Source: Adineta ricciae (taxonomy: Eukaryota; Rotifera; Eurotatoria; Adinetida; Adinetidae). From it: DNA of 64,000 nt. Under the pieces are notes generated by a model, which saw nothing but the letters and a program-made list of their open reading frames with translations, did not search any database and had not been told where the DNA came from. Positions 5,211 to 11,052 of this stretch are shown here, piece by piece. The stretch is from contig CAJNOJ010000161.1 in the NCBI GenBank assembly GCA_905250025.1, positions 65,560 to 129,559 on the forward strand, written 5' to 3'. The first letter of the stretch is position 1. Every line of letters starts with the position of its first letter. The position numbers and the translations under genes were made by a program.

Positions 5211-8200
5211 TTATTTGTAATTAAACAACCAGTTTACAGGAAAGGAAAAAAACAGACCGAAAAGAGAGAGAAGAAAACAAACAACGGACAGACTGAGTAT
5301 AAAGCTGGCAGGAGAGAAAAGATTTTTAAAAAATACAGTTACAAAGTTTGGGGCGTTGGTTGCGTTCGCACGCGATGTGTTGGAAGGTATAAGATTCTGT
5401 CTTGACCATTTATAACCTTCCCAATCCTTAAAATATTCCACTAGTCGCTCACCGAGTTCACTTTCATCGTCTTCTAACTCAATTGGCTCTTTATTACCAT
5501 AAACTGTAATAATACCATCCCTAACAGTCATACCATATTCATGATCTATAAATAATTTCTTAATAATGGGTAGCCAAGATTCCATCTTCGTTTTCAGAAA
5601 AAAAACAACAAATTCATGTAGAGAACTATGCTTCAAAATCAGAGAGTCCATCTTCTGAACGCACATTGACAGTTTCTTAACTCTAGATTCCTCCTGCCAA
5701 TCTAGTAAGGATGGGGAGAATTGAAAAATCTTTCCAATCATAGATCTTATCTCGTATGTGTTGAAGTTTCCATAGTCTACACACGTATCCAAAAATGTTT
5801 CTATCACTTCTTTGGTCATTGCTTTCTCACCGATTTGTGCGAGAGTCTCACATGCGCTAAGTCTGACCGTAGCATCTTCATTCCCACAAACCAGGATTGA
5901 AAGTTCCTTAATTATTACATCGGTTTCTGCTTTTTCACCAATTTTGGCAAGACTGCTGCATGCAAATCCTCTGACATCCTCACTGCTGTCACCAAGCAAA
6001 TTTAAGAGCATCTGAATTACTTCATTAGTTGCTGCTTTTTCACCCATTTTCTCGAGAGTTTTGTACGCAAATCGTCTGACATACGCATTGTTGTCACAAA
6101 GTAAATCTAAGAGCTTCTGAACTACTTCATTAGTTGCTGCTTTTTCACCCATTTTCTCAAGTGTCTGACACGCAGATTCTCTGACATCCGATTCCTGGTC
6201 ACCCACTAAAAGTAAGAGCTTCTGAATTACTTCATTAGTTGCTGCTTTTTCACCCATTTCCTTAAGAGTCCAGCACGCATATCCTCTGACATACCAATCC
6301 TTGTCTTCCAGTAAAAGTAAGAGCTTCTGAATGACTTCGCCAGTTGCTGCTTTTTCACCCATTTTCGCGAGAGTCTGGCACGCAGATCGTCTGACATCCG
6401 CACTGTTGTCACCCAGTAAAAGTAAGAGCTTCTGAATTACTTCACTAGTTGCTGCTTTTTCACCCATTTTCTCAAGAGTCTGGCACGCAGATCGTCTGAC
6501 ATCCTCACTGTTGTCACCCAGTAAAAGTAAGAGCTTCTGAATTACTTCACTAGTTGCTGCTTTTTCACCCATTTTCTCGAGAGTCAGGCATGCATATCGT
6601 CTGACATACCCTTCCTTGTCACCGAGTAAATCTAAGAACTTCTGAATTACTTCATTAGTTGCTGCTTTTTCATCCATTTCCTTAAGAGTCCGGCGCGCAA
6701 ATGCTCTGACATTCCAATCCTTGTCATCCAGTAAAACTAAGAGCTTCTGAATTACTTCGCCAGTTGCTGCTTTTTCACCCATTTTCTTAAGAGTCCGGCA
6801 CGCAAATGCTCTGACATTCCAATCCTTGTCATCCAGTAAAACTAAGAGCTTCTGAATTACTTCGCCAGTTGCTGCTTTTTCACCCATTTTCGCGAGAGCC
6901 TCGTACGCATATTCTCTGACATACCAATCCTTGTCACCCAGTAAAACTAAGAGCTTCTGAATTACTTCATTAGTTGCTGCTTTTTCACCCATTTTCTCGA
7001 GAGTCTGGCACGCAGATCGTCTGACACCCTCACTGTTATCACCCAGTAAAAGTACGAGCTTCTGAATTACTTCGCCAGTTGCTGCTTTTTCACCCATTTT
7101 CTTAAGAGTGGAGCACGCAGATTCTCTGACATTCCAATCCTTGTCATCGAGTAAAACTAAGAGCTTCTGAATTACTTCATTAGTTGCTGCTTTTTCACCC
7201 ATTTTCTCGAGAGTCTGGCACGCAGATTGTCTGACATCCTCACTGTTATCACCCAGTAAAAGTACGAGCTTCTGAATTACTTCGCCAGTTGCTGCTTTTT
7301 CACCCATTTTCTTAAGAGTGCAGCACGCAGATTCTCTGACATTCCAATCCTTGTCATCGAGTAAAACTAGGAGCTTCTGAATTACTTCATCAGTTGCTGC
7401 TATCTTGCCTAGCTCTCGGAGAAGCGCATTCATACCATTTTTTAGAGGAGTGTCCATATGATGAAGTCGTGTCATAATTCTATTGATCGTTTTATTCCCT
7501 ACGTCGCTTCGTAGGATATTCATGATGACATCGTGTGCGGTATATTGTAGCTCACGTTTGGAATCCATTTCGGTGTCGTTATCATGTCGATGTCTGTTAA
7601 AATACTCATTGTCCGCATTGTATCGCATGTGATCGGCTGTACCACAAGATAATTTAATAAGCGTATCGATTATCTGATCGGATAATGCGTCTGGGTGCAT
7701 GGTTTCAAACACTCGACAAGCACGCTCTTTAAAATCCAGTTCTCCACCGATAAGTACTTTTGAATGAAAGTCAATCCATTTTGAGTATGTATTAGAAGTC
7801 GGTAAATTCGCAACAATTGAATATACTGCGCGTCTTTTGTCAGTATTTTGAGTATCGTACAGCCGTATAAAGAAATCAACTATTTCTGGCCGATTTACTA
7901 ATGACGGACTTCTTTCGAGTAATGGTAAGAATAAATGATTTGAACCATAATATTGCGTAGTTATTTCATATTGGATCCGTTGGATTATTGAATGAATTAA
8001 CTCATCAAAGTATGGAACGCTTTCGTCACACCCAGTCGCTTCTAAACAAGTAATAACAATCTGAACATGTCTGAAACCAACGACATCTAATGGGTCTTCC
8101 ATCAATGTTTTCCAGAATAAATTCATCCATTGTTGATCATTGTCATGAAACAGAAGACCAGATAGAAAAGTGAAAACTAACTCAAAGCGTTGATTATATT

Positions 8201-11052
8201 TTAGTGACTGAATGAGTGTGATTGCTTTTTTCTTCTGATGCTGATCTTTATTCTTTAATGTTCTCAATAAATATCGTGCTGCAAAATATTCTTGAAAACT
8301 GAGATGAATAAAGTAATGATCTTTTTCTACTTCGATTTGGGTGCCAGTTAACTTGTGACCATCGCATGATTTTAATATACCAATTTTGAGTATATTGGCA
8401 AAGAGCTTTGAGTACTTTGTCGTTCTGAAAACGTTTTTCAGTAGTTTTGAACTTAGAATAATGTTGTTGTTCTCCATTCCTTTAAATGCTAATATTTCCA
8501 AAAATTTCAGTGGTTCATCACAAACTCCAAGAAGAAGGTCATCTATCATTTGGATATCTTTGTTTTCTCTTCCCCTATATCGTCGACATAGCCATACTGT
8601 AATTTTGTAGTATAATCTTGTGATTGTTATTATCTCACTTTCTTGCCAGTTAGTATCACCCCAAATAGTACAAATAAGTTCAAGATTGATTGGAATATGT
8701 CCAATACCCCAAATCTTTGGATTTCCTTTCAAGAAGTTCAGCAACTTCTCATCTTGTTCCGATGAGTTTTGTGTCTCATTCCCTAATTGATTGAAGAATT
8801 GTTCGACATATTTTCGGATATTTTCATCCGTAAAACCTGTAATTTCCATTTGTACAGAATATGATAAAGTATTCATATATGGACGAGATGTAATGATGTG
8901 ATTTGGAGTGTTTTGTAGCCGATCAAGTAAGCGTTTAATATGACGTGAATCATCCGAAGCTATTTCATCATAGCCATCGAGAAGCCACAGAATTCGACTT
9001 GTCTGAACTAGTTCTTTCAAAAGCTTTTCAACTTCGTCTGACGAAGATAGGTAAGAAAAATATTCATTTTTCAGAATGTCAATGAGAGAATAATCTTTAT
9101 TATCTTTATATGGTGCTAATGCTAAGGATCGCAGAGGAACGAGCACAACTAATTCATATTCTGACCATATTGCACCAGTTGCCCATTGATAAGTAGCATA
9201 GCGACAAAATGTTGATTTTCCGATACCAGCACGACCGAATACTAAGATCTTTCTGTTCTGATCTTTGAATTTTTGGAAAATATCTTTGATATCGATAGGA
9301 GTTTTACTTCCATAAATATTTTCATAAGTCTCCAATATTGCATCGATACTATGAGTATTACGGAATTCTTTTTCTTTTTCTTTAGTTTCTTTCGTTTCTA
9401 CTATAGCCAAATTGATATAACTCTGCTCGATTGGAAACGTTTTCGATGGATTCATGAAGCGTTCCATTTTGTTGTCACATAGATATTTGTATTTAATTAA
9501 TTCGAAAAGATAATTTGGTGGACCAATTGATTCTGTTGAGACGTTCTTCGATGAAGAATGTTTTTTGTTCAAATAACTGATCAAATTCTCTAAATGCATT
9601 TTGTCCTTATTCTGAATTTCCTTGATATTATAACAGTGAAGAGATCCAACTACTGTCATTAACCAAGAAGAATCTTCCCAGAATTTCTTGTCGTCGAACA
9701 AACACGGGATAATTAGTTTTCTCCGCTTATGTGCATATTGTAGTTCAAGTTTACAAACTGGTGACCTTTCATAATCTGGTGTCAAAAAACAAAAAACTGC
9801 TGCAGCGTTCTCTACTCCATTAGTCAAACTAAAAGAATAATGCAATTGAAAGAAACAATGTAGAGAGAGAGAAAGAATATATAATTTAAAACACATACCT
9901 ATCGTGCAGGCTATCTGTGGTGAAATTTCCTGATTGGTTGATCCAAACTGGCATCTTCTGATTTCGTAAAAACTCGTAAATTTGAAATACGATTTCTTTA
10001 TGATTGATATTGTAAGATAACATGATGTGTTGTCCAGCAGGAATCACAGTACTAAAAGATGAAAATTAAACGCTTCTAAATACTGAAATTGTAACAAATA
10101 TAGCTATAAAACAATGCTTTTTCATGTCTGCATGACTGATAAGATACTTTGTAGAAAACATTCGACATACAGATGAATTTATTTTACACGATCAAGTTAT
10201 TATATATTTTGCATTGCTATGTATTTACTGAGATATTCTTCAGATCGTCTATTCGAACATCCGTATTTAAATGTAAATACATGGAACATAACCTCTTCTT
10301 TTTACGAGACATTATCTTAGGTATTTGAAGAATTTGGTTTTTGGAATATCTGTCTTGATTAGAAGTAAAACATATTGCCAATAGACTCACCATTCTTCCA
10401 AAACAATCGTGGAGAGATCAGAAGGCCATGCAGATTTGACACGCAAGCGAGTACCAGGCATAAGAATTATTTCTTTTTCTTCTGGTTTTGCAGAATACAT
10501 ACTAATGTCTTTACCATTGATTGCGTAAATCGAAAACAGAGTGCCCTTAAAATCAGCAAAACATCTCGCTGCATTCTGATTAGATGAACAGGAATTTATG
10601 CTCCACCAAGTGTGTTCGGTACCTTCAACAAACTCTTCTCCAAAATTATCTCCAACGCCTCGCCATATCACCGATATTGTACATGGTGGTAATTTTTTTA
10701 AAGCAGTTGTGAATAACTTCAAGAAGTCGAACCATGGTTTTAATGCTTCTGGATTCTTGAAACGAAGTGCTTCGTTAAGACGCTCGAAGAAGTTCACCGG
10801 CATTGTGTAAAGATAGATTGATGCTGATTCATCTCTTGTTAAATGTGTATTTTGTTTACGTTTTTTCATGGCTTTATTGACATATTCTTCCACGTTAGGC
10901 ACGATATGGACGACACTTTTTACTGCAATTTCTAGTGATTTCACAGGCACATCGTCGTACCCAAATATTGGATTGCCATTCGCTTCTTGAAATTCAGCAA
11001 AAGTACTCGTCGCAAAGCGATTGTTTGTTTTATCAACATTTTGTTGAGACAT
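5211..11052 (-). CDS. ART-TIR-NACHT-HEAT repeat protein with C-terminal membrane segment
   Basis: Exons: 10391-11052, 9899-10051, 5211-9828, joined by GT-AG introns with matching phase; 1,810 residues predicted. Residues 1-220 form an arginine-type ADP-ribosyltransferase domain (R131 in WRG, S151/S154, E192-x-E194 in EEKEIILMPG). Residues about 222-340 form a TIR domain (HIMLSYN start; SPVCKLELQYA with a Glu near 300 at the catalytic position of NAD-cleaving TIRs). A NACHT-type NTPase follows: GRAGIGKST near 470, LLDGYDE near 554, HIITSRP near 580. About 15-16 HEAT-like repeats of 35 residues cover roughly 1080-1620. A hydrophobic segment near 1782-1804 could anchor the C-terminus. This is the layout of a STAND-type sensor: repeats for recognition, NACHT for oligomerisation, and two NAD-using effector domains. 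Without exon 2, the third exon alone would appear to start with a false Met near 9896. The stop is embedded in AATAAA. The function is inferred, not known. Confidence 0.85.
5790..7415 (-). repeat. Tandem 105-bp coding repeats (HEAT units)
   Basis: About 15 head-to-tail units of 105 bp inside the large third exon of the ART-TIR-NACHT-HEAT gene. Each encodes a 35-residue unit around MGEKAATxEVIQKLL. Units fall into two main types that partly alternate, one with DDKDWNVR and one with GDNSEDVR at the inter-helix loop. Neighbouring units are nearly identical at DNA level, and 210-bp dimers recur (units 1-2 versus 3-4). The last one or two units, toward the C-terminus, are degenerate. Confidence 0.9.

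What the first reader, a model, noticed from the sequence alone, without database searches (positions are those of the whole stretch)
5211..11052. ART-TIR-NACHT-HEAT-membrane fusion: a sensor with two NAD-using effector domains
Seen: three exons joined in phase give one protein with an R-S-ExE ART domain, a TIR domain keeping the Glu of NAD-cleaving TIRs, a NACHT NTPase with Walker A and B, about 15 HEAT repeats and a C-terminal hydrophobic segment. Known: STAND/NLR proteins couple repeat-based recognition to an effector; ART and catalytic TIR domains both consume NAD+. Inference: this is an innate-immune or cell-death receptor with a double NAD+ effector. I know of no described family with this exact order.
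Basis: partly seen in the sequence, partly recalled or inferred. Interest (0 to 1): 0.87.

Follow-up and report, generated by a model that had tools for sequence, protein, structure and literature searches.

The report
Rotifer NLR-like receptor with two effectors
A bdelloid rotifer gene encodes one long protein that looks like an intracellular immune receptor carrying two different NAD-using enzyme-like domains in front of its switch and a repetitive sensing arm; it belongs to a rotifer gene family and has not been tested experimentally.

Summary
Three minus-strand exons with GT-AG introns join in phase into 1,810 residues with ART, TIR, NACHT and about 15 HEAT units. The window lies in Adineta ricciae; a public gene model joins the same exons. 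The ART|TIR junction is kept in phase in C449 and in four mutually similar paralogs whose ART is about 41% identical. Of 120 listed homologues (242 found), 12 have ART-TIR-NACHT, from two Adineta and two Rotaria species. The ART keeps R-S-ExE and the ART fold. The TIR keeps its Glu and is nearest to the NADase Cat1, but lacks the usual Trp, and one pocket Asp is Asn here. The NACHT is NLR-like. The HEAT units are near-identical with hypervariable positions. The C-terminal hydrophobic segment is not shared by the nearest paralog. Most likely an NLR-type receptor with two NAD+-using effectors: architecture shown; activity, ligand and outcome inferred. New variant of a known kind.

The parts
10391..11052 (-). 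Exon 1: ART domain, N-terminus hydrophilic by eye; R131, S154, E192, E194
   Evidence: PF01129 above cut-off; R131/S154/E194 invariant in 69 aligned rows; AF2 model pLDDT 90.7; Foldseek to ART2.2 TMq 0.69
10052..10390 (-). Intron 1 (339 nt, GT-AG, phase 2); unspliced reading gives ...LEEW-stop
   Evidence: Same junction and phase in C449 (340 nt) and in C868, C148a, C894, C502 (113-114 nt)
9899..10051 (-). Exon 2: N-terminal half of TIR; no in-frame ATG before HI-MLSY
9829..9898 (-). Intron 2 (70 nt, GT-AG)
   Evidence: translated intron seen in metagenome ORFs P0031 and P0063
5211..9828 (-). Exon 3: TIR C-half with E300 (9744-9746), linker, NACHT, winged-helix/HD2-like region, HEAT array, C-terminus
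8790..9251 (-). NACHT core (aa 465-618): Walker A GRAGIGKS, Walker B LLDGYDE
   Evidence: PF05729 57.5 bits; nearest solved NACHT chains NOD2, NLRP3, NLRP1, NAIP, NLRC4 by profile (5irm named as NOD2)
5724..7403 (-). HEAT array, about 15 units of 35 aa, mean nucleotide identity 0.84 over 13 units, 11 hypervariable positions
5229..5336 (-). C-terminal hydrophobic stretch in the window frame; probably not a conserved part
   Evidence: C449 and P0002 end before it; P0001 leaves it out

Best explanation
It is a bdelloid NLR-type (STAND) receptor. The HEAT array is the sensing arm and holds the protein inactive. On binding its ligand, the NACHT switches nucleotide state and oligomerises (inferred from the family). 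Oligomerisation brings together the two N-terminal effector domains: the TIRs, whose NADase sites in Cat1 form between stacked TIRs, and the ART, which would transfer ADP-ribose to arginine or other targets, or simply hydrolyse NAD+. The result would be NAD+ loss, ADP-ribose signals and modified host or invader proteins, hence defence or cell death. Shown here: gene structure, domain order, motifs, folds, presence of the fusion in several species. Inferred: activity of each domain, oligomerisation, ligand, outcome.
For: Fusion: identical public model over residues 1-1604; the annotation pipelines for A. ricciae used RNA-seq (PMC7943196 and PMC5916493, passages), though reads at this junction were not seen; junction in the same phase in C449 and in four loci with about 41% ART identity and introns of 113-114 instead of 339 nt; exon 2 residues before its first in-frame Met (T-x-IP-x-G-x-H) recur in those loci, and a Cys follows the ART at the junction in 9 of the 12 ART-TIR-NACHT proteins, Rotaria P0010 'LEEC-PKISQGKHVM' among them. 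Effector residues: 11 of 12 keep ART R, S, E, E (P0012 lacks that half of its ART) and 12 of 12 the TIR E; the 12 include P0001, the window's own product. ART fold. TIR nearest solved chain Cat1, E 2.6e-5 alone and 9.3e-10 by profile. NACHT NLR-like. HEAT units homogenised with variable positions; coding divergence from C449 (dN 0.063-0.206 by region) exceeds that of intron 1 (0.039) and the 5' flank (0.044).
Against: No transcript, protein or assay. C868, C148a, C894 and C502 are close copies of each other, so they are about one independent comparison. The junction differs in P0004, P0011 and P0053. TIR lacks W at -4 and has N259 at the Cat1 D33 position. NLRC4_HD2 is below its cut-off (27.3 versus 33.1). 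Intron 2 differs by 0.080, as much as dN in most regions, and dS varies 0.06-0.30, so gene conversion or constraint on intron 1 could make the contrast. The hypervariable positions were chosen on the window's own array; in the six arrays from other loci that gave a result (C564, C593, C148a, C148b, C868, C564b) pN/pS there is only 0.8-1.3. Four A. steineri ART-only annotations end in LEEW, so a stand-alone ART product is possible.
Confidence: 0.62

Rival explanations
1. One catalytic effector plus a scaffold: the ART is the only enzyme and the TIR serves to assemble the receptor, as TIRs do in Toll-like receptors.
For: No Trp at the WxxxE position in 83 of 83 rows with a letter there; Asn at the Cat1 D33 position in this copy; ART-NACHT receptors without TIR are common (33 of 120).
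Against: TIR E300 in 83 of 84 rows, S294 in 80 of 83, S233 in 25 of 26; nearest solved relative is an NADase; TIR-NACHT forms without ART exist (72 of 120, though many are metagenome ORFs that may be cut; C398 has its own start and no ART hit in 1.29 kb upstream), so TIR can be the sole effector.
Confidence: 0.2
2. Two neighbouring genes: a stand-alone ART ending LEEW-stop and a TIR-NACHT-HEAT gene starting at M231.
For: In-frame TGA directly after the exon 1 donor; A. steineri ART-only annotations P0139, P0148, P0154, P0155 and the partial A. ricciae P0121 end in LEEW; annotation P0003 starts at the matching Met.
Against: A TG|GTRAGT donor in this phase always reads TGG-TRA, so LEEW-stop is what the donor itself gives; conserved residues lie upstream of the first Met inside exon 2; introns of 113-114 nt leave little room for a second promoter. 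Eleven public ART-TIR-NACHT models besides P0001.
Confidence: 0.1
3. Intron 1 is a switch: retained, it yields a 221-aa ART alone; spliced, the receptor. The cell thus makes a free enzyme and a bound one from one gene.
For: Unspliced reading ends in a stop at once; intron 1 is more alike between C449 and the window (0.039) than intron 2 (0.080) or the coding parts.
Against: Nothing shows that the retained form is made; a stop at the donor follows from the consensus.
Confidence: 0.08

Closest known systems
Animal NLRs (NOD2, NLRP3, NLRC4, NAIP)
   Same: NACHT nearest by profile, N-terminal effector and C-terminal repeat layout
   Different: HEAT instead of LRR; N-terminal ART and TIR instead of CARD/PYD/BIR (names of the latter recalled)
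Cat1, CRISPR-associated TIR NADase
   Same: Nearest solved TIR by sequence; S7, S68, E74 of its pocket match S233, S294, E300 (residue matching by eye on the alignment)
   Different: Sensor is CARF, not NACHT-HEAT; D33 is N259 here; no ART
Mono-ADP-ribosyltransferase ART2.2 and bacterial effector ARTs such as XopAI
   Same: Fold: XopAI ranks first by E-value (4.3e-10), ART2.2 third with the highest TMq of the 50 rows printed (0.69); R-S-ExE here (that ART2.2 has the same motif is recalled)
   Different: No sequence hit in the PDB at E 0.01; no leader by eye; fused to a receptor
Fungal NLRs with high internal repeat conservation (PMC4986451, passages seen)
   Same: NACHT, swappable N-terminal effectors, near-identical repeats with variable positions
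   Different: WD/ANK/TPR repeats; no ART in the passages seen
NACHT-HEAT ORF of a gammaproteobacterial MAG (L044)
   Same: NACHT-HEAT, 36% identity, with an ankyrin + TIR-like ORF just upstream (HEAT, TIR and ankyrin labels by eye)
   Different: No ART seen, separate ORFs, no introns needed

Membership tests
NLR / STAND NACHT receptor | NACHT with Walker A and B | tested here: met
NLR / STAND NACHT receptor | winged-helix/HD2 after NACHT | tested here: inconclusive
   NLRC4_HD2 27.3 bits versus cut-off 33.1; HLSFQEY motif present
NLR / STAND NACHT receptor | C-terminal superstructure repeats | tested here: met
   HEAT, not LRR
NLR / STAND NACHT receptor | ligand-triggered oligomerisation | not testable with these tools
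   -
R-S-ExE ADP-ribosyltransferase (PF01129) | R, S(xS), ExE and ART fold | tested here: met
R-S-ExE ADP-ribosyltransferase (PF01129) | transferase or NADase activity | not testable with these tools
NAD-cleaving TIR | catalytic Glu | tested here: met
   E300; 83 of 84 rows with a letter there
NAD-cleaving TIR | Trp of WxxxE (recalled motif) | tested here: not met
   V296 here; W in 0 of 83 rows
NAD-cleaving TIR | other Cat1 pocket residues | tested here: inconclusive
   S233 and S294 kept, N235 kept, D33 equivalent is N259, N10 equivalent is I236
Toll-like receptor | LRR ectodomain before the TIR | tested here: not met
   ART directly precedes TIR; no LRR among the 25 of 35 families shown

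The most novel reading that the evidence does not exclude
A bdelloid class of NLRs in which one oligomer clusters two different NAD+-consuming enzymes, so that TIR-made ADP-ribose products and ART-made protein marks arise together, with effector modules (ART, TIR or both) gained and lost freely and HEAT arrays kept near-identical yet variable at set positions, a recognition repertoire like that of fungal NLRs but evolved in an asexual animal.
Probability: 0.3. Interest if true: 0.82.

Novelty: new variant of a known kind. Interest (0 to 1): 0.66.

Why it matters
If both domains work, this would be a receptor that puts two NAD+-using effectors in one chain, and it would open the little-studied intracellular immunity of bdelloid rotifers, animals known for asexuality and gene uptake. 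The family is directly testable: natural ART-only, TIR-only and double forms exist in one genome.

Tried and rejected
Bacterial origin of the metagenome hits: unlikely for the two checked, because P0031 and P0063 carry the translated intron 2; many other unnamed ORFs have a TIR match of about 70 residues that begins at residue 1-3, as an ORF starting after intron 2 would. Their 'no ART' label is therefore not reliable, and the 72/33/12/3 tally is approximate; P0012 and P0013 have only part of an ART. Single ancient fusion by tree: not settled. On the quick NACHT tree (120 rows, P0048 left out as short, L044 added) ART-TIR-NACHT needs 8 changes (shuffled mean 11.6); on the ART tree 6 (9.1). The ART tree used 58 rows (10 ART-TIR-NACHT, 12 ART-NACHT, 36 ART-only, 18 of these named) out of 45 ART-bearing hits and 103. 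HEAT statistics: 14 stretches were given to, 9 gave a row (two of them overlap in C449), 5 (C593b, C398, C222, C441, C280) had too few units by my pattern. A repeat-to-helix map gave only one usable unit and is not used. Foldseek with the whole-receptor model returned mainly HEAT proteins, besides NOD2 and NLRP3, so TIR was placed by sequence. That AF2 model is of P0004 (A. steineri), which lacks part of the NACHT, not of the window protein. Papers: I saw no bdelloid ART, ART-NACHT or ART-TIR-NACHT report in the listings (20 of 264 shown; 3; 0; 12; 0; 4; 17 of 19 shown); the library is open-licence PMC only. Passages alone were seen of PMC7159879, PMC7145615, PMC4986451, PMC8195603, PMC7955679, PMC11258130, PMC5916493, PMC7943196 and PMC12162218; PMC11258130, on bdelloid rotifers and a fungal pathogen, has no 'NACHT' or 'ADP-ribos' in its main text.
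Full report
Where it is. The window is G000:C161:65560-129559 of a 130.5 Mb assembly. The best protein hit, P0001, is annotated as Adineta ricciae and its longest contig, 243,971 bases, equals the length of C161, so the window is from that bdelloid rotifer.

The observation. Exons 11052-10391, 10051-9899 and 9828-5211 on the minus strand, with GT-AG introns of 339 and 70 nt, give 1,810 residues without a stop. Pfam finds ART, TIR_2, NACHT and HEAT above their cut-offs. 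P0001 is identical over residues 1-1604 and differs only near the C-terminus.

Is the fusion real? No reads could be examined. The indirect evidence is good. Next to TIR-NACHT frames of the same genome, the ART exon lies at C449 (86% identical) and at C868, C148, C894 and C502 (about 41%). In all six, window included, the junction reads GAAGAATG|GTRAGT ... AG|TAC in the same phase, while the intron is 339-340 nt in two and 113-114 nt in four. The four are close copies of each other, so they count as about one independent case. The second exon has conserved residues before its first in-frame methionine, so its translation must begin upstream. Among the 12 ART-TIR-NACHT proteins a Cys stands at the junction in nine; P0004, P0011 and P0053 differ. 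Three further loci (C593, C550, C148b) show the end of the ART exon cut by a break of one or two Ns. Four A. steineri ART-only models do end there, so a stand-alone product is not excluded.

The family. Of 242 hits, 120 were listed; my own profiles class them as 72 TIR-NACHT, 33 ART-NACHT, 12 ART-TIR-NACHT and 3 NACHT only, with the caveat that many unnamed ORFs may be cut. The 12 come from A. ricciae (5), A. steineri (4), Rotaria socialis (2) and R. magnacalcarata (1) by the names. The organisms named in that list are Adineta, Rotaria and Didymodactylos (bdelloids, recalled); about half of the rows bear no organism. In the window's genome, ART joins NACHT without a listed TIR match at C362, C222 (twice, the second NACHT with a stop) and C133, and C398 is a TIR-NACHT gene with its own start and no ART hit in the 1.29 kb before it. 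The genome gave 140 TIR_2 matches and 152 matches to the ART exon, pieces counted apart and candidates capped. In GTDB genomes a scan with two peptide patterns found one locus: a gammaproteobacterial NACHT-HEAT ORF at 36% identity; that scan was narrow.

ART. Of 46 rows (window and its twin P0001 included), R131 is kept in 44 of 45 with a letter there, S154 in 44 of 45, E192 in 43 of 44, E194 in 44 of 44; in a second set R131, S154 and E194 are invariant in 69 rows. The window's own ART exon folds with pLDDT 90.7 and matches ARTs: first by E-value the bacterial effector XopAI (4.3e-10), third ART2.2 (8.4e-10, TMq 0.69, the highest of the 50 rows printed). By sequence it has no PDB hit at E 0.01.

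TIR. E300 is kept in 83 of 84 rows. The nearest solved chain is Cat1, which depletes NAD+ and builds its site from two stacked TIRs (PMC12162218, abstract and passages). Of the Cat1 pocket residues, S7, N9, S68 and E74 match S233, N235, S294 and E300; N10 is I236 and D33 is N259 here, the latter Asp in 18 of the 26 family rows that reach that far (59 of 85 do not); the Trp of WxxxE is absent. NADase activity is plausible, not shown; a Glu there also occurs in Toll-like receptors (recalled).

NACHT and HEAT. The NACHT is closest to NOD2 and NLRP3 among solved chains. The HEAT array holds about 15 units. Over 13 units the mean nucleotide identity is 0.84; at 11 positions pN is 0.41 against pS 0.14, elsewhere pN is 0.04 against 0.14. 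The positions were picked on this same array; C449 gives 4.4-4.9, but it is a near copy, and the six arrays from other loci that gave a row give 0.8-1.3. This points to homogenised repeats with tolerated or favoured change at set positions, as in fungal NLRs (PMC4986451, passages); selection is not proven. Against C449, dN is 0.070 in ART, 0.106 in NACHT, 0.206 before the HEAT array and 0.167 within it, while intron 1 differs by 0.039, the 5' flank by 0.044 and intron 2 by 0.080; dS varies from 0.06 to 0.30, so conversion between copies is likely.

C-terminus. The hydrophobic stretch (aa about 1770-1805) is absent from C449 and P0002, which stop before it, and from P0001. I do not count it as a part of the design.

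Reading. The anatomy fits an NLR-type receptor: HEAT senses, NACHT switches and assembles, and two NAD+-using domains act. The first part rests on family knowledge; the double activity is an inference. It is a new variant of the NLR kind rather than a new kind, already present in public databases under an enzyme name, but I found no paper describing it in the searches named in Tried and rejected.

Noticed in passing
window:11978-12096: Degenerate TCACCC/CACCCTCACCCA tandem repeat about 0.9 kb upstream of the ATG.
   Followed up: no
window:5060-5129: 14-nt tandem repeat (GCTCATCTTTCCGT, 4.9 copies) about 80 nt downstream of the stop codon.
   Followed up: no
   Followed up: partly
window:10052-10390: Intron 1 differs less between the window and C449 (0.039) than intron 2 or the coding parts; regulatory constraint or gene conversion.
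   Followed up: partly
L044:128-5881: Gammaproteobacterial MAG with an ankyrin/TIR-like ORF directly before a NACHT-HEAT ORF (domain labels by eye).
   Followed up: partly
A. steineri hits among P0014-P0064: 27 of the 33 ART-NACHT proteins are named A. steineri and 3 A. ricciae; several assemblies may be pooled, so alleles may inflate this.
   Followed up: no
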